Positions 30,701-39,264 of a stretch of DNA of 64,000 nt are shown here, one piece after another; position 1 is the stretch's first letter; each line of letters opens with the position of its first letter. Made by a program: the position numbers and the translations under genes. The stretch comes from Bacteroidales bacterium (GTDB lineage Bacteria; Bacillota; Clostridia; Lachnospirales; Lachnospiraceae). The stretch lies in NCBI GenBank assembly GCA_023664535.1, contig JAMPFJ010000001.1:271461-335460 (forward strand), given 5' to 3'. The notes beneath the pieces were generated by a model. The model was not told the DNA's origin and ran no database searches. It worked only from the letters and a program-made list of their open reading frames with translations.

Positions 30701-32207
30701 CGGGACAATGATGAATAAAGAAGGGCATGATATTCCTTTTGAAACCTTCCTCGGTTTTTACGGAGATAAGGAGCCGGATATTGATTTGAATTTTTCCGGG
30801 GAGTACCAGGCAAGCGCTCATGCCTATACGGAAAAGCTATTTGGCAAGGGTCATGCATTCCGTGCGGGGACAATCGGTACCATTGCCCAGAAAACGGCGG
30901 AGCAGCTGGTATACAAATATTACCAGGAGCGGGAAATTGTAAAACGCAGATGTGAGCTTAGCCGGGTTGCAAGCGGCTGTGTAGGGGTAAAGCGGACTAC
31001 CGGACAGCATCCCGGAGGAATGGTTGTCGTTCCCAGTGACCGGGAAATCTATGAATTTACGGCGATTCAAAAACCCGCAAACGATACGAAAACCAATATT
31101 ATCACAACCCATTTTGAGTATCATTCCATTGATGCCAACCTGTTAAAATTAGATATTCTCGGACATGATGACCCTACCATTATCCGCCGGCTGGAGGATT
31201 TGACGGGAATTGACGCCAAGACGATTGCCTTGGATGATGCGCAGGTCATGTCCATTTTTCATGACCCGTCCGCCCTGGGAATCAAGCCGGAGGATATTGG
31301 GGGCACATCTACGGGTTCTCTCGGTGTTCCGGAATTTGGAACGGATTTTGTTATTCAGATGCTGGTGGATACAAAGCCGAAGAACTTTTCGGATTTGGTG
31401 CGTATTTCCGGACTTTCCCACGGTACCGATGTGTGGCTGGGCAATGCGCAAACCCTGATTGAAGAGGGGAAAACGGAGCTTTCCGGAGCAATCTGCTGCC
31501 GTGACGATATTATGGTTTATCTGATTCATATGGGATTGGAGCCGGGGCTTGCCTTTAAGATTATGGAAAGTGTGCGTAAAGGAAAGGGGCTTCAGCCTGA
31601 TATGGAAGAGGAAATGTTAAAGCACAACGTTCCGGACTGGTATATCTGGTCCTGTAAAAAGATTAAGTATATGTTTCCGAAGGCACATGCGGCAGCCTAT
31701 GTCATGATGGCATGGCGAATAGCATATTTTAAGGTGAATTATCCGCTGGCATATTATACGGCATATTTCAGTATCCGCGCAAAAGCGTTTAATTATGAGA
31801 CGATGTGCAGGGGAAAGGATAATCTTGACCATTACATGAAAGAAATTATGGATAAACCGAAGGACAGAAGAACAGGAGCGGAAGAAGATGCCCTGCGGGA
31901 TATGCGTCTGGTGCAGGAAATGTATGCCAGAGGCTATGAGTTTATGCCCATTGACATTTATCGTGCCGATGATGTAAACTGCCAGATTATTGACGGAAAG
32001 ATTATGCCGTCATTTAATTCCGTGGAAGGCGTTGCCGGTAAGGCGGCAGCACAGATTAAGGAAGCGGCAAAGCAGGGACCGTTTATTTCCAAAGAGGATT
32101 TGCGGATTCGGGCGAAAATCGGCAAATCCACTATTGAAAAAATGACGAATCTGGGACTGCTGGACGGCATGCCGGAATCCAGTCAGTTAAGTATTTTTGA
32201 TTTGTAA
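27720..32207 (+). CDS. polC: DNA polymerase III alpha subunit, Gram-positive PolC type
   Basis: This 1495-residue replicative polymerase shows the PolC order. An N-terminal domain and a variable linker (about 200-260) come first, then an OB-fold (about 280-370). A PHP domain (from about 383, ELHMHTVYSDNDS) is split by a DEDD proofreading exonuclease (about 470-640, D475-E477 in FDLETTGL). The polymerase core has catalytic PDIDLNF (D1020, D1022). The C-terminus ends in QLSIFDL, a beta-clamp-binding motif. GGAGG lies before ATG 27720. It is the last housekeeping gene before the CRISPR locus. Confidence 0.97.
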   Translation: MAERRPFDEVFPGFTCPGELKELFSQVLVTEAILVKSAKVLKLHIESKILIEKQDIYAVEDSLSDFVFQGSMRVKIIEHYTLSNQYNISRLTQVYKDSLLFELRTESSILYRLVKNAEWYIDEPVITLTLDDTFLAKTRSTEIKRYLESVYRERFGYTIQVGFDYTEEQKDSIRRANEHKLTLEVNQIVTQAEQNERELAAAENTGNPENAAGRAKGADATKKKGNPADSAREKTPVPDNRFGARENAGRRTPYGRNKASDPEVIYGRNVEGEEVGITEITEGLGEIVIRGQVFEMEERELRNEKLLITFAVTDFHDSVSGKIFVTKEEWAVLKEEFKVKQFYKVKGTPAYDTYVREITMNNIAGIKPIPDYTAKRQDNALEKRVELHMHTVYSDNDSVVDVGKIISRAKEWGHPAIAITDHGVAQAFPVANHCLKKDDPFKIIYGVEGYFVDDLKDFVLNSKGQSLDDHYVVFDLETTGLSPKFCKIIEIGAVKIEQGEITDTFSVFVNPQMPIPYNITKLTSITDDMVLEADTIETVLPAFLEFVGDSVLVAHNAGFDVSFIRKFAKDMGRKIDNSVVDTMTLAHILCPELGKFTLDRICKHLGIKLENHHRAVDDAAATAEMFKRFIPMLKEKKVYTLDDLDIFGETSPDAIKKSRRYHGIILAKNEIGRVNLNRLISASHVEYFHMRPIMPKSLINKYREGLILGSACEAGELFRALVNGAEEEEIDRIVRFYDYLEIQPIGNNAFMKEADGYPDVNTDEDLQDLNRSIVKLGETYNKPVVATCDVHFLDPEDKLYRAVLMASKGFKDAENQPPLFFRTTEEMLKEFEYLGSDKAKEIVVDNTVLISNMIEKISPVSPDKCPPVIEDSDNTLRSICYDKAHEIYGPNLPKQVTDRLEKELTSIIGNGYAVMYIIAQKLVWDSNDHGYLVGSRGSVGSSFVATMAGITEVNPLSAHYICPHCYYVDFESEQVKSYSGSSGCDMPDMACPKCGTMMNKEGHDIPFETFLGFYGDKEPDIDLNFSGEYQASAHAYTEKLFGKGHAFRAGTIGTIAQKTAEQLVYKYYQEREIVKRRCELSRVASGCVGVKRTTGQHPGGMVVVPSDREIYEFTAIQKPANDTKTNIITTHFEYHSIDANLLKLDILGHDDPTIIRRLEDLTGIDAKTIALDDAQVMSIFHDPSALGIKPEDIGGTSTGSLGVPEFGTDFVIQMLVDTKPKNFSDLVRISGLSHGTDVWLGNAQTLIEEGKTELSGAICCRDDIMVYLIHMGLEPGLAFKIMESVRKGKGLQPDMEEEMLKHNVPDWYIWSCKKIKYMFPKAHAAAYVMMAWRIAYFKVNYPLAYYTAYFSIRAKAFNYETMCRGKDNLDHYMKEIMDKPKDRRTGAEEDALRDMRLVQEMYARGYEFMPIDIYRADDVNCQIIDGKIMPSFNSVEGVAGKAAAQIKEAAKQGPFISKEDLRIRAKIGKSTIEKMTNLGLLDGMPESSQLSIFDL

Positions 32208-32219
32208 CAGGGAATAAAC

Positions 32220-32247
32220 TTGAATTTAGATAAAAAACGAGTATAAT
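32220..32247 (+). promoter_or_regulatory. Promoter of the crRNA-like RNA upstream of cas12a
   Basis: TTGAAT (32220-32225), 16 bp, TATAAT (32242-32247). Counting 7 bases on, transcription should start at about 32254, which is the first base of the crRNA handle. The RNA would therefore need no 5' processing. Confidence 0.75.
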
Positions 32248-32253
32248 ATTATT

Positions 32254-32322
32254 GATTTCTACTATGGTAGATTGAGTAAATAAAATTGCCTTTAATGTGT
32301 TATTGCATAAGGCAATTTTTTT
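32254..32322 (+). ncRNA. CreR-like crRNA-like RNA predicted to repress cas12a
   Basis: Bases 32254-32272 (GATTTCTACTATGGTAGAT) match the 3' handle of the array repeat (AATTTCTACTGTTGTAGAT). The stem TCTAC/GTAGA is intact; two changes lie in the loop and one in the first base. The next 15 nt, TGAGTAAATAAAATT (32273-32287), are identical to the minus strand at 32346-32332, where a TTTA PAM precedes them. Identity ends after exactly 15 nt. A terminator closes the gene at 32322. The upstream half of a normal repeat is missing, so this is not an array unit. Cas12a guides this short usually bind without cleaving, so the RNA should act as a repressor guide. Cas-repressing RNAs of this type are known for types I and V-A; the assignment here is from sequence alone. 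Confidence 0.85.
32282..32322 (+). terminator. Intrinsic terminator of the crRNA-like RNA
   Basis: AAAATTGCCTT (32282-32292) pairs perfectly with AAGGCAATTTT (32309-32319) around a 16-base loop. The second arm runs into T7 (32316-32322). The left arm includes positions 10-15 of the short guide. Confidence 0.85.
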
Positions 32323-32331
32323 GTTGTCGTA

Positions 32332-32350
32332 AATTTTATTTACTCATAAA
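32332..32350 (-). promoter_or_regulatory. Predicted Cas12a target site with TTTA PAM in the cas12a promoter
   Basis: Read on the minus strand: TTTA (32350-32347), then TGAGTAAATAAAATT (32346-32332). This is a canonical Cas12a TTTV PAM followed by a perfect 15-nt match to the guide. The PAM touches the -35 box of cas12a (32351), so a bound complex would occlude it. Confidence 0.85.
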
Positions 32351-32379
32351 TTGACACGAGGCGAAAATGATGATATTAT
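32351..32379 (+). promoter_or_regulatory. cas12a operon promoter
   Basis: TTGACA (32351-32356), 17 bp, TATTAT (32374-32379); a second TATAAT overlaps at 32379-32384 but with poor spacing. Start expected near 32386. AAGGAGG follows 9 bases before the cas12a ATG. Confidence 0.8.
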
Positions 32380-32437
32380 ATAATAAATAGTTTTTATAAC
32401 GAAAAGATAAGCAAAATAAATAAGGAGGCGACAGATT

Positions 32438-35400
32438 ATGTATCAAAGTAAAGATTTATTGGCAGACAATTTTATCGGGATGTTTCCGGTAAACAAGACA
32501 TTACGCTTTGAGCTAAAACCTATTGGCAGGACACAGGAATATATTGAGGAACATGGCATACTTGATACGGATTTTCACAGAGCAGAAAGCTATAAAAGGG
32601 TTAAAAAAATTATTGACCGGTATCATAAGAAATTTATTGATGAAGCATTATCGGGATTGGTATTGGATGGTTTAGAAGAATATATGGCGATTTATCTTAT
32701 AACTAAAAGAGATGATAAGCAGGAAAAAGAATTGGTAAATATACAGACCTCATTGCGAAAACAAATCGCTAAGCAGTTTACTAAACATCCCCGATATAAA
32801 AATCTGTTTAAAAAAGATTTGATAAAGAAGGATTTAATTTATTTTACGAAAGGCTGTGAGGAAGAGCAGGATTTGATAAAGGAATTTACTGATTTTACGA
32901 CATATTTTGAAGGATTCCATAAAAACAGGGTCAATATATATTCGGATGAAGATAAATCTACTGCAATTTCGTATCGTATAATTCATCAGAATCTGCCAAA
33001 GTATATTGATAATATCAAAGTTTTTTCCATGGTAAAAAATAGTGCTGTTTGTGAACAATTTGAAGGACTATTAAAAGATTTACAGACAAGGATAAAGATT
33101 GACACAATAGAAGAGTATTTTGAGATTTCGGGATTTAACAAGGTGATAACCCAGCAGGGCATAGATGTTTACAATACTATTCTGGGTGCATTTAGTGAAG
33201 AGGATAAAATAAAAGTAAAGGGACTTAATGAGTATATCAATCTTTATAATCAGCAGACCGGTAAACTGAAGAAGGATAAGATTCCTAAATTGAAGCCACT
33301 ATTTAAACAGATTCTCAGCGACAGAGAAACTGTATCTTTTATTACCGAACAGTTTGCGTCAGATAAAGAAGTACTGGATACTGTGCAGGAATGTTATATC
33401 CGATTGAGACAGACAATATTGGAAAATGAGCAGCAAATGAATGCAGGTGAATTGCTGACGGATATCTCTTCCTATCAATTAGATAAAATTTATATAAGAA
33501 ATGATTCTTCAATAACAGCGATTTCAAAATATAGATTTGACGACTGGTCCTATCTTCTTAATGCAATAAGCGATTGTTACGACCATGAAAATAAAGGTAA
33601 AAATAAGAACACTGGTAACTATGCCGAAAATAAAAAGAAAGCATTGAAAAAAATCAAAAATTATTCAATTCTGGAATTGAATAAAATAGCAAGTGATTAT
33701 GCGAATAAGGAATATCATATTGAAGAGTATTTTCAGAAAGAAATTGTCAGATTGTTAAATAATGTAAATCGTGCTTATGATACATTTCTTATTTTGTATA
33801 ATGCCCGAGATGACAGAACGGTTTCTTTGTGCAAAAACGACAAGGACATAGCAAAGTTAAAAGCTTTACTGGATTCCCTCAAAGAAGTACAATGGTTAAT
33901 AAAACCGTTGATTGGCGGACAGGAAGAATCTGATAAAGATGAAATGTTTTACGGAGAATTACTGCGTATTTGGGCAGAATTAGATACGATTACGCCTCTT
34001 TATAATAAAGTCCGTAATTATGTAACGAAAAAAGCATATTTTTTGGAAAAGGTCAAACTGAATTTTGATAAGTCCACATTATTGGATGGATGGGACAGAA
34101 ATAAGGAGAAGGATAACCTTGGTATTATTATGAGGAAGAATGATTTGTACTATCTGGGTATCCTAAATCGGAGGTATAATAAAGTAATAGAAGAAGCACC
34201 GGAACCGGAATCAAATAAGGTATATCAAAAGATGGAATATAAATTATTGCCCGGTCCCAATAAAATGTTACCTAAAGTATTTTTTTCCCAATCAAGAAAA
34301 GAGCAATTTTCACCTGGCGATGCATTAAAAGAGAATTATGATAAGGGAACACACAAGAAAGGAGAATCCTTTAATCTTGATAATTGTCACGAACTGATTG
34401 ATTTTTTCAAAAGTTCATTAGAAAAACATGAGGAATGGTCACAGTTTGGCTTCCGTTTTTCTGATACAAAAAATTATGAAGATATTAGTGGATTTTATCG
34501 GGAGGTAGAGCATCAAGGGTATAAACTTACCTTTCGGGATATTGATGAAGAATATATTAACAGCTTAGTAGACCACGGACAACTTTATTTATTTCAAATA
34601 TATAATAAAGATTTTTCACCGTACAGCAAGGGAACCCCTAATCTTCATACCTTATATTGGAATATGTTATTTGCTCCGGAAAATCTCAAGAATGTGGTAT
34701 ATAAGTTAAATGGACAGGCAGAAATATTTTATCGAAAAGCAAGTATAAAACCCGAGGATATAATTCGCCATAAGGAAAAAATTCCTATTTTAAATAAAAA
34801 TCCGGAAAATAAAAAAAGAGAAAGTATTTTTCCTTATGAGTTAGTAAAAGACAAACGTTTTACCTGTGATAAATATCAATTCCATGTTCCGATTACTTTA
34901 AATTTTCAAGCAGAAGGAGAAAATCGTTTAAATCATAAAATAAATCAGCTGATACATGATGCAGAAGATATGCATGTAATTGGAATTGATAGAGGAGAAC
35001 GAAATTTACTTTACTTGACGGTAATCGATATGCAGGGAAACATCAAGAAGCAAATGTCTTTAAATGAAATTATTTCCTATGATAAAAATAAGGTGAAGCA
35101 TGAAAAAAATTATCAGCAGTTACTGGACAAACGGGAACGGGAGAATAAAGCAGCAAGACAGAACTGGCAGACCATCAATACCATAAAAGAGTTGAAAGAG
35201 GGCTATTTAAGCCAGGTGATTCATGTTATTGCGAATTTGATGATAGAATATAATGCGGTTGTTGTGTTGGAAGATTTGAATGCCGGGTTTATAAGAGGTC
35301 GTCAAAAAGTGGAAAAACAGGTATATCAGAAGTTTGAAAAAATGCTAGTGGAGAAGTTAAATTATCTGGTAGATAAAAATAAAAATTCGGAGGAAAACGG

Positions 35401-36166
35401 AGGACTTTTACGTGCATACCAGCTGACAGACAAATTTGTTAGTTTTCAGCGTCTGGGGAGACAGTCGGGTTTTCTTTTTTATGTACCTGCATGGAATACC
35501 AGTAAAATAGACCCGACAACAGGATTTGTAAATTTATTTTACACAAAATATGAGTCAATAGAGAAAACAAGAGATTTTATTATGAAGTTTGATTCTATTT
35601 TCTATAACCATGAACAGGGATATTTTGAGTTTACGTTTCATTATTCAAATTTCACCTATAAAGCAGAAGGAAGCAGACAGGAGTGGACTGTTTGTTCAAT
35701 AGGAAAACGAATTGAGAATTATCGAAATCCGGAGCAGAATAATGAATGGGATACCCGTATTGTTGATTTAACGCAGGAAATAAAAGATTTATTGATAAGG
35801 TATGATATCCCAATGGATGGCGGCGGAGATTTGCGCAAAGCTTTCATAGGAATAGAAAAGGCAGATTTTTATAAGCATTTTATGAAATTATTTACATTGA
35901 CTATGCAGATGAGGAATAGTGATTCCAAAACTGGGACAGACCAGCTTTTATCGCCTGTATTGAATAGACAGGGTAAATTTTTTTCCACCGGGACGGGAGA
36001 TTTTCTGCCGGAAAATGCAGATGCAAACGGTGCCTATAATATAGCTCGTAAGGGGTTGTGGATAATTGAACAGATTAAGAATACAGATATCCGGCAGCTG
36101 GACAAAATAAAATTGGCAATATCAAATAAAGAATGGCTGAAATATGCACAGGAGCACACACTGTAA
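32438..36166 (+). CDS. cas12a: Cas12a (Cpf1), type V-A CRISPR effector nuclease
   Basis: This 1242-residue effector processes its own pre-crRNA and cuts DNA next to a T-rich PAM. The N-terminus NKTLRFELKPIGRT is typical of Cas12a. KGTPNLHTLYW lies in the PAM-side region. The FHVPITLNF segment belongs to the wedge region that handles crRNA. The RuvC residues are Asp851 (IGIDRGERN), Glu945 (VLEDLNAGF) and Asp1195 (ENADANGAYNIA). The Nuc-domain Arg is Arg1159 (MQMRNS). All catalytic residues are present and the frame is intact, so the protein should be active. Length is in the family range of about 1200-1310. Its stop overlaps the cas4 start. Confidence 0.98.
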   Translation: MYQSKDLLADNFIGMFPVNKTLRFELKPIGRTQEYIEEHGILDTDFHRAESYKRVKKIIDRYHKKFIDEALSGLVLDGLEEYMAIYLITKRDDKQEKELVNIQTSLRKQIAKQFTKHPRYKNLFKKDLIKKDLIYFTKGCEEEQDLIKEFTDFTTYFEGFHKNRVNIYSDEDKSTAISYRIIHQNLPKYIDNIKVFSMVKNSAVCEQFEGLLKDLQTRIKIDTIEEYFEISGFNKVITQQGIDVYNTILGAFSEEDKIKVKGLNEYINLYNQQTGKLKKDKIPKLKPLFKQILSDRETVSFITEQFASDKEVLDTVQECYIRLRQTILENEQQMNAGELLTDISSYQLDKIYIRNDSSITAISKYRFDDWSYLLNAISDCYDHENKGKNKNTGNYAENKKKALKKIKNYSILELNKIASDYANKEYHIEEYFQKEIVRLLNNVNRAYDTFLILYNARDDRTVSLCKNDKDIAKLKALLDSLKEVQWLIKPLIGGQEESDKDEMFYGELLRIWAELDTITPLYNKVRNYVTKKAYFLEKVKLNFDKSTLLDGWDRNKEKDNLGIIMRKNDLYYLGILNRRYNKVIEEAPEPESNKVYQKMEYKLLPGPNKMLPKVFFSQSRKEQFSPGDALKENYDKGTHKKGESFNLDNCHELIDFFKSSLEKHEEWSQFGFRFSDTKNYEDISGFYREVEHQGYKLTFRDIDEEYINSLVDHGQLYLFQIYNKDFSPYSKGTPNLHTLYWNMLFAPENLKNVVYKLNGQAEIFYRKASIKPEDIIRHKEKIPILNKNPENKKRESIFPYELVKDKRFTCDKYQFHVPITLNFQAEGENRLNHKINQLIHDAEDMHVIGIDRGERNLLYLTVIDMQGNIKKQMSLNEIISYDKNKVKHEKNYQQLLDKRERENKAARQNWQTINTIKELKEGYLSQVIHVIANLMIEYNAVVVLEDLNAGFIRGRQKVEKQVYQKFEKMLVEKLNYLVDKNKNSEENGGLLRAYQLTDKFVSFQRLGRQSGFLFYVPAWNTSKIDPTTGFVNLFYTKYESIEKTRDFIMKFDSIFYNHEQGYFEFTFHYSNFTYKAEGSRQEWTVCSIGKRIENYRNPEQNNEWDTRIVDLTQEIKDLLIRYDIPMDGGGDLRKAFIGIEKADFYKHFMKLFTLTMQMRNSDSKTGTDQLLSPVLNRQGKFFSTGTGDFLPENADANGAYNIARKGLWIIEQIKNTDIRQLDKIKLAISNKEWLKYAQEHTL

Positions 36167-38105: not shown

Positions 38106-39264
38106 GTTTAGTAACCTATAAAAATTTCTACTGTTGTAGATAGTTGATTTAATGGGCATACAAATATGTTTAGTAACCTATAAAAATTTCTACTGTTGTA
38201 GATTTCAACCATTGCGTTTGTATCATAATGTTTAGTAACCTATAAAAATTTCTACTGTTGTAGATGAGACTGGTTTACCTGTAGAACGGACGGTTTAGTA
38301 ACCTATAAAAATTTCTACTGTTGTAGATAACGTTTGTAAAAGTATCCTCTTCAGGTTTAGTAACCTATAAAAATTTCTACTGTTGTAGATAACGTTTGTA
38401 AAAGTATCCTCTTCAGGTTTAGTAACCTATAAAAATTTCTACTGTTGTAGATACGTGATAGAATATAGGTATAGAGGTAAGGTTTAGTAACCTATAAAAA
38501 TTTCTACTGTTGTAGATCAGCCTTCTTCGCAGACTTAATTACTGTTTAGTAACCTATAAAAATTTCTACTGTTGTAGATGATTTCTGGAAGAGAGGAGGC
38601 GAGGAGTTTAGTAACCTATAAAAATTTCTACTGTTGTAGATCCACTCCGTTCCGGCAGACTGTAAAGGTTTAGTAACCTATAAAAATTTCTACTGTTGTA
38701 GATCGTGTCCAGTATTTTTATACGACTAAGTTTAGTAACCTATAAAAATTTCTACTGTTGTAGATGTAAAAGCAGTTCTTTATTATGCTTACGTTTAGTA
38801 ACCTATAAAATTTCTACTGTTGTAGATTAAGACAGATAATTATACTAGCGATCAGTTTAGTAACCTATAAAAATTTCTACTGTTGTAGATTAGTAATCTG
38901 GTATGCAATACTCCATGTTTAGTAACCTATAAAAATTTCTACTGTTGTAGATCTTAGACACGGCAGTGACAACAGGTCGTTTAGTAACCTATAAAAATTT
39001 CTACTGTTGTAGATAGAAAAAGGAGTGTAAAGAATATGTGTTTAGTAACCTATAAGAATTTCTACTGTTGTAGATCGTGTCCAGTACCATTATACGACTA
39101 ATGTTTAGTAGCCTATAAGAATTTCTACTGTTGTAGATTATTATTGCAGTAAGGGCTTGAAAAAAGTTTAGTAGCCTATAAGAATTTCTACTGTTGTAGA
39201 TTCAGACTGTTTGACCAGAAAGCTGTGTGTTTAGTAACCTATAAGAATTTTTACTGTTATAGAT
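38106..39264 (+). CRISPR. Type V-A CRISPR array, 19 repeats and 18 spacers
   Basis: Repeats are 36 bp, begin GTTTAGTAACCTATAA and end in the Cas12a handle AATTTCTACTGTTGTAGAT. Spacers are 25-29 bp, mostly 26-27. Repeats 1-11 and 13-15 are identical. Repeat 12 (38793-38827) lacks one A. Repeats 16-19 carry A-to-G changes, and repeats 17 and 18 also have TAGCC. Repeat 19 (39229-39264) is the most degenerate, so the old end is on the right. Spacers 4 and 5 (38329-38354, 38391-38416) are identical. Spacers 10 (38704-38729) and 16 (39076-39102) differ at three positions plus one extra terminal base. Confidence 0.99.

What the first reader, a model, noticed from the sequence alone, without database searches (positions are those of the whole stretch)
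32220..32379. A crRNA-like RNA gene positioned to guide Cas12a to its own promoter
Seen directly: a promoter (TTGAAT-16-TATAAT) whose start falls on a Cas12a-type handle with an intact TCTAC/GTAGA stem. Then come a 15-nt guide and an intrinsic terminator. The guide is a perfect match to 32346-32332 on the minus strand, preceded by a TTTA PAM, and the PAM abuts the -35 (TTGACA, 32351) of cas12a. Known: Cas12a needs a TTTV PAM and usually does not cleave with guides of about 15 nt, though it can still bind; Cas-repressing crRNA-like RNAs (CreR) have been described for type I and V-A systems. Inferred: the RNA makes Cas12a repress its own operon, so loss of crRNA-bound Cas12a (for example by anti-CRISPRs or low array supply) would raise cas expression.
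Basis: partly seen in the sequence, partly recalled or inferred. Interest (0 to 1): 0.96.

Follow-up and report, generated by a model that had tools for sequence, protein, structure and literature searches.

The report
Self-silencing guide RNA for cas12a
Beside its cas12a gene this bacterium carries a predicted small RNA gene with a Cas12a-type handle and a 15-letter guide that exactly matches the cas12a promoter, so it likely makes the CRISPR enzyme hold down its own production.

Summary
A lone Cas12a handle (32254-32272) sits 7 nt behind TATAAT; a 15-nt guide and a terminator hairpin follow. The guide equals the minus strand 32346-32332 behind a TTTA PAM that abuts the TTGACA of cas12a. In the whole genome its only target at two or fewer mismatches is this promoter.

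In 108 cas12a loci scanned I found nine lone intact handles near cas12a, in several phyla. All nine guides have a TTTA-preceded match in their own cas12a region: exact seeds of 7-15 nt in eight, 9 nt with one mismatch in the ninth. With guides tested against other loci, none of 936 pairs reached 8 nt.

Best reading: a CreR-type RNA that likely makes Cas12a bind and repress its own promoter without cutting. CreR in type V-A is in print (review passages), so this is a new member of a known kind. Details I have not seen described: only the mature handle is kept; transcription is predicted to start at it; cutting seems avoided by a terminator-limited guide here and, in four of nine units, by a one-base guide bulge after the seed. 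I have no transcript or repression data.

The parts
32220..32247 (+). predicted promoter of the RNA gene: TTGAAT, 16 nt, TATAAT; start expected at about 32254
   Evidence: 10 of 12 consensus matches; TATAAT ends 7 nt before the first handle base; inference as to activity
32254..32272 (+). Cas12a-type handle GATTTCTACTATGGTAGAT; the 5' half of the array repeat is absent (3 of 17 identical)
32273..32287 (+). 15-nt guide TGAGTAAATAAAATT
   Evidence: only target at two or fewer mismatches in the genome is the cas12a promoter
32282..32322 (+). intrinsic-terminator-like hairpin and T-run; its stem takes in guide bases 10-15
   Evidence: fold
32332..32346 (-). protospacer: perfect 15-nt match of the guide
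32347..32350 (-). PAM TTTA, abutting the cas12a -35
32351..32379 (+). predicted cas12a promoter TTGACA, 17 nt, TATTAT
   Evidence: 11 of 12 consensus matches
32438..36166 (+). cas12a, 1242 aa
   Evidence: TIGR04330, 1419.9 bits
36133..36723 (+). cas4
   Evidence: TIGR04328
36720..37688 (+). cas1
   Evidence: TIGR04329
37699..37974 (+). cas2
   Evidence: TIGR01573
38106..39264 (+). CRISPR array: 18 repeats with an intact handle and a degenerate last one

Best explanation
The stretch 32220-32350 holds a predicted CreR-type RNA gene whose 15-nt guide, behind a Cas12a handle, exactly matches a TTTA-flanked site against the -35 of cas12a, and it likely makes Cas12a bind and repress its own promoter without cutting it. 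Shown by sequence: handle, guide, PAM, target, hairpin, uniqueness of the target, and parallel units in other cas12a loci with guides matched to their own targets. Inferred: the RNA starts at the handle, so it would need no repeat processing; the terminator ends the guide at 15 nt, too short for cutting; Cas12a loaded with it would keep RNA polymerase off the promoter. Known for CreR from reviews, untested here: array crRNAs compete for Cas12a and anti-CRISPRs disable it, and either would lift the repression.
For: Anatomy and uniqueness. Nine of nine lone intact handles near cas12a (8 in 90 loci; 1 in 18 further loci) have a TTTA-preceded match in their own cas12a region: exact 15, 9, 11, 9, 7, 9, 8, 9 nt, and L042 9 nt with one mismatch. 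Controls: guides against other loci's regions, 0 of 936 pairs at 8 nt or more; decoy 20-mers from the same gaps, 139 of 9520 (1.5%) at 7 or more and 23 (0.24%) at 9 or more. All nine PAMs are TTTA although TTTA is 49% of the TTTV sites in those regions (regions of nine loci, with L089 and without L112). L042 and L064 differ in the guide at positions 5 and 8 and their targets carry the same differences. 4 of 9 guides are in the sense direction of cas12a, which excludes antisense pairing for these. 15-nt guides let AsCas12a bind but not cut (PMC11919711 passages).
Against: No RNA or reporter data. The same paper reports weak or no repression with 15-nt spacers in two human cell lines. In the predicted fold only 9 guide bases are free. 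The closest Cas12a relatives with upstream DNA (L020 67%, L081 65% identical) and the one genus-mate with cas12a (L018) have no such unit. L042 has a mismatch at guide position 6 and L061 only a 7-nt seed, a length that 10 of 936 foreign pairs also reach.
Confidence: 0.82

Rival explanations
1. The guide and target are just an inverted repeat that shapes RNA or DNA, for example a terminator or attenuator for polC read-through, with no role for Cas12a.
For: In the window guide and target are inverted and 44 nt apart, and the hairpin between them is a good terminator.
Against: In the read-through fold the guide does not pair with the target and the whole is not more stable than shuffles (z -0.86, 37 of 200). 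Four of the nine units (L042, L057, L064, L112) are direct, not inverted, repeats of their targets, and L061 has handle and target on the same strand too. It explains neither the handle nor the PAM.
Confidence: 0.06
2. A decayed CRISPR array or stray repeat whose neighbour matches the promoter by chance.
For: Stray repeats occur; the handle loop differs from the array repeat (TATG against TGTT).
Against: 15-nt match with PAM: 0 of 5000 shuffles above 8 nt; nine of nine loci against 0 of 936 foreign pairs at 8 nt or more.
Confidence: 0.03
3. The RNA acts as an antisense RNA on cas12a mRNA rather than through DNA.
For: In L015 the complementary site is at the annotated start codon and the guide is antisense.
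Against: In the window the site lies upstream of the predicted transcript start, so it would not be in the mRNA; in four of nine loci the guide is sense; the PAM would be unexplained.
Confidence: 0.03
4. The unit makes Cas12a cut, not merely bind, its own promoter, as a self-destruct or selfish element.
For: Perfect PAM and perfect seed, and a Cas12a that looks able to cut.
Against: The guide match ends at 15 nt; 15-nt spacers do not support cutting by AsCas12a; the locus is intact, and other units have shorter or bulged matches.
Confidence: 0.02

Closest known systems
CreR, cas-regulating RNA of type I-B, I-E and V-A (Liu et al. 2023, Cell Host Microbe; not held; known here from review passages)
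   Same: crRNA-like RNA gene by the cas operon, guide matching the cas promoter, effector expected to repress its own operon, V-A included
   Different: One review calls CreR a mini-CRISPR RNA and another speaks of partial promoter complementarity; here there is a single handle without flanking repeats, a predicted start at the handle, a terminator end, and a full 15-nt match. Whether Liu et al. describe such forms I could not read.
Stand-alone repeats / crRNA-like elements incl. subtype V-A (Shmakov et al. 2023, NAR; recalled, not held)
   Same: Repeat-derived elements with spacers partly matching cas promoters
   Different: Recalled as mini-arrays of two repeats; this unit has one handle
CreA of CreTA (PMC9458426 passages)
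   Same: One or two ectopic, degenerate repeats whose RNA sends the effector to a promoter
   Different: Type I-B Cascade; represses a toxin RNA gene, not cas
Francisella scaRNA with Cas9 (PMC9458426 passage) and Cas9 self-repression relieved by Acr (PMC13131331 passage)
   Same: A short match (15 bp for scaRNA) lets a nuclease repress instead of cut; Cas9 represses its own expression and Acr proteins relieve it
   Different: Type II Cas9 systems; different effector and different RNA

Membership tests
CreR (type V-A) | crRNA-like RNA gene outside the array, with a repeat-derived handle, by the cas operon | tested here: met
   handle 32254-32272, (gene predicted from sequence; no RNA data)
CreR (type V-A) | guide complementary to the cas promoter, with a proper PAM | tested here: met
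   15 nt, TTTA, against the -35 of cas12a
CreR (type V-A) | match limited, so that the effector binds but does not cut | tested here: inconclusive
   the match ends at 15 nt; non-cutting at 15 nt is reported for AsCas12a, not tested for this protein
CreR (type V-A) | guide and promoter kept matched in other loci | tested here: met
   nine of nine units
CreR (type V-A) | RNA is made and represses the cas promoter through the effector | not testable with these tools
   needs RNA-seq and a reporter
CreR (type V-A) | repression eased by crRNAs or anti-CRISPR proteins | not testable with these tools
   known from reviews only
CreTA | target is a toxin promoter | tested here: not met
   the only target at two or fewer mismatches in the genome is the cas12a promoter
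CRISPR array / mini-array | two or more repeats flanking a spacer | tested here: not met
   single handle; the next handle is 5.9 kb away, in the array

The most novel reading that the evidence does not exclude
cas12a regulators arise again and again when the system captures a PAM-flanked piece of its own cas12a promoter, and they become safe in two convergent ways: a terminator laid into the guide that stops it at 15 nt (this window), or one extra base bulged out of the guide after an 8-9 nt seed, after which the match resumes (L042, L057, L077, L112). L089 may be a young case, still written behind the last repeat of its array.
Probability: 0.4. Interest if true: 0.78.

Novelty: new member of a known kind. 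Interest (0 to 1): 0.55.

Why it matters
It is an unusually clean natural example of a Cas12a that is predicted to regulate itself with a non-cutting guide: a full 15-nt match, the PAM on the -35, a predicted ready-made 5' end and a terminator-set 3' end. The nine-locus set, whose guides differ between loci together with their targets, makes the V-A form of this regulation testable in simple hosts. The recurring one-base bulge suggests how guides that match the cell's own DNA can be made harmless while still binding.

Tried and rejected
Rfam search of 32100-32500 at E up to 1: no match. Exact handle-plus-seed pattern in viral contigs: 0. Cas12a in viral contigs: two distant loci (L104, L105), no unit. 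Second targets of the guide in the own genome: none better than 3 mismatches of 19. Other isolated-looking handles in G815 and G819 were an array member beside repeats with a longer loop, and a single site without a match. A broad test of resumed pairing after the seed (offset up to 2, start within 4 nt) was weak: 4 of 10 guides reach 5 nt, but so do 11% of shuffles, and 2 of 90 foreign pairs. The narrow test (exactly one base skipped, right after the seed) gives 5, 6, 7 and 5 nt in 4 of 9; 5 is reached by 62 of 12,248 TTTA-anchored tails taken over all regions, 0.9% of shuffles and 1 of 72 foreign tails. It was framed after I had seen the alignments, and for L042 I set the seed end to 9 by hand across its mismatch. 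L064 shows a similar shift only with one more mismatch and is not counted.

Rows dropped: before the count I left out L001-L008 (array loci of this genome), L016 and L017 (weak hits), L101-L103 (a weak hit and pieces of L099 and L100), and L009 and L011 (same contigs as L020 and L024); 90 loci remained, 88 with at least 200 nt upstream. In one search, 12 of the 34 loci L108-L141 were duplicates, 4 were short and 18 new; several of these 18 are gene pieces, some from one genome, so 9 of 108 is a rough rate; 105 of the 108 have at least 170 nt upstream. Starts were taken as the first ATG of the open frame, which is wrong in some loci (L042 for one). One search, with looser stems, also listed imperfect handles (L012, L046, L054, L055, L065, L074, L091) without a good match; one search listed one inside the L121 gene, also without. 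In one search, 2820 handle readings, arrays included, were tested; apart from the lone units only L089 stood out (12 nt, TTTA); the other hits listed there (8-9 nt, or longer only with a mismatch) are what so many tests would give.

Full report
What is there. Between the end of polC (stop at 32207; Pfam domains) and cas12a (32438) lies a compact unit: promoter-like TTGAAT-16-TATAAT (32220-32247), Cas12a handle (32254-32272), a 15-nt guide (32273-32287), a terminator-like hairpin (32282-32322), then on the minus strand the guide's perfect match (32346-32332) behind TTTA, which abuts TTGACA of the predicted cas12a promoter. The operon is a complete type V-A system: cas12a, cas4, cas1, cas2 and an array of 18 repeats with intact handles plus a degenerate one. 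Cas12a is full length and shows the RuvC-type motifs (IDRGE, LEDLN, DANGAYN; motif names recalled, letters), so it should be able to cut. The window's genome shares a family label with G002, whose contig has the length of that of L024, a Lachnospiraceae record, so it is likely a Lachnospiraceae species.

Is it more than chance. The handle pattern occurs 19 times in the window, 18 in the array and once here; 100 shuffles give none. In the whole genome, allowing three mismatches to the handle consensus with a four-base loop, this is the only site outside the array with the TCTAC/GTAGA stem; one other site (C48:32256) has a different perfect stem, TCTGC/GCAGA, at three mismatches (read off its list). 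The guide with PAM has one target at two or fewer mismatches, the cas12a promoter; six more sites have three. In 5000 shuffles of the gap no TTTV-preceded match above 8 nt appeared.

Relatives. cas12a loci came from the family (7 of 397 genomes over the cut-off), genus (2 of 26) and phylum (3 of 398), each count including this genome; a named genome collection (80 kept of 364 encoding stretches); viral contigs (2); and five groups centred on genomes already in hand, which are included (6 of 153, 16 of 393, 1 of 296, 1 of 247, 1 of 78). Scanned for lone intact handles near cas12a: 90 distinct loci gave 8 and 18 further loci gave 1. They are L010 (the window), L015 (a genome of the same family), L026 (Paludibacteraceae), L042 and L064 (Campylobacteraceae), L057 (labelled Alphaproteobacteria), L061 (Chryseobacterium), L077 (Bacteroidales), named as in their records, and L112 (family group of L064). 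All nine guides have a TTTA-preceded match in their own cas12a region: exact seeds of 15, 9, 11, 9, 7, 9, 8 and 9 nt, and for L042 5 nt exact or 9 nt with one mismatch. Foreign regions: 936 pairs, none at 8 or more, ten at 7. Decoys from the same gaps: 139 of 9520 at 7 or more, 23 at 9 or more (decoys preceded by TTTV or within 20 nt of the true guide were left out). The Cas12a proteins of eight of these loci are 40-66% identical to each other (L112 not compared), so the units are old or arose more than once.

Co-change. L042 and L064 both lie behind the end of a seryl-tRNA synthetase gene (L042 by Pfam; L064 by its similar last residues). In the first nine guide bases they differ at positions 5 and 8, and the targets carry the same two differences; position 6 is a mismatch in L042. 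L112 has another neighbour on one side (GATase_2 domain) and its own matched pair.

Shared design. Where an array is in view (5 of 9), the 5' half of the repeat is gone (3, 3, 5, 6, 7 of 17 identical), leaving the part that Cas12a holds (recalled). TATAAT stands 16, 19, 16 and 21 nt before the stem in L010, L042, L064 and L112 (4 of 9), so the RNA is predicted to begin at or within a few bases of the mature handle; the other five have no TATAAT within 60 nt. In the window the hairpin takes guide bases 10-15; L015 also has a strong hairpin with a T-run behind a 9-nt match; several others show no clear terminator. In L042, L057, L077 and L112 the match stops after 8-9 nt, one guide base is skipped, and 5, 6, 7 and 5 nt match again. 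I read both as ways to keep Cas12a from completing the pairing needed for cutting; this is inference, the bulge test was framed after the fact, and the broader test was weak.

A related oddity. In L089 the sequence right behind the last repeat of its array matches its own cas12a 5' region for 12 nt behind TTTA. That would be a regulator carried by the array itself.

How it likely works. Cas12a with this RNA would sit on 32332-32350, against the -35, and keep RNA polymerase off. When crRNAs fill Cas12a, or an anti-CRISPR disables it, the promoter would open; this part comes from reviews of CreR (PMC12737573 passages; PMC13131331 passages; PMC12948488 passage). For AsCas12a, 15-nt spacers are reported to allow binding without cutting, though they gave weak or no repression in two human cell lines (PMC11919711 passages).

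What is known. CreR is described for type I-B, I-E and V-A (passage, citing Liu et al. 2023, which is not held). Shmakov et al. 2023 (recalled; not held) also reported stand-alone repeats in V-A. The unit is therefore filed as a new member of a known kind. The listings of my paper searches showed no title or abstract on handle-only V-A units, on guides ended by a terminator, or on a one-base guide bulge in such RNAs; the two main papers could not be read, so I claim no priority.

Against. The window's nearest Cas12a relatives with upstream DNA (L020, L081) and its one genus-mate with cas12a (L018) lack the unit. L024 and L018 have a gene with WYL and WCX domains directly before cas12a, perhaps a protein regulator in its place (inference). 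Only 9 of 108 loci carry a unit by my criteria, so this control is optional. No expression data are at hand.

Noticed in passing
window 38293-38416: Two neighbouring repeat-spacer units of the array are identical (spacer AACGTTTG...), probably a duplicated unit.
   Followed up: no
window 38668-38729 and 39040-39101: Two distant array spacers are nearly identical (differences in the middle only; units 94% alike), as if taken from two variants of one target.
   Followed up: no
window 39229-39264: The last array repeat is degenerate in its handle (TTTAC...ATAGA).
   Followed up: no
L089 6219 nt past the cas12a start, and L106 1-48: The flank behind the last array repeat matches the cas12a 5' region for 12 nt behind TTTA; a possible array-borne regulator.
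   Followed up: partly
L024 4963-5955; L018 5274-5927: A gene with WYL and WCX domains lies directly before cas12a in two family relatives that lack the RNA unit.
   Followed up: partly
L010, L042, L061, L064, L112: Guides from unrelated loci share words like GAGTTA or GTGTTA; chance, a common origin or a shared promoter word, not tested.
   Followed up: no
G820 (genome of L077): Only two sites fit the handle pattern with a four-base loop, one of them fitting the lone unit and no array, so the array may be missing from the assembly or lost.
   Followed up: no
L145 (genome of L064): One array mixes repeats with four-base and six-base handle loops.
   Followed up: no
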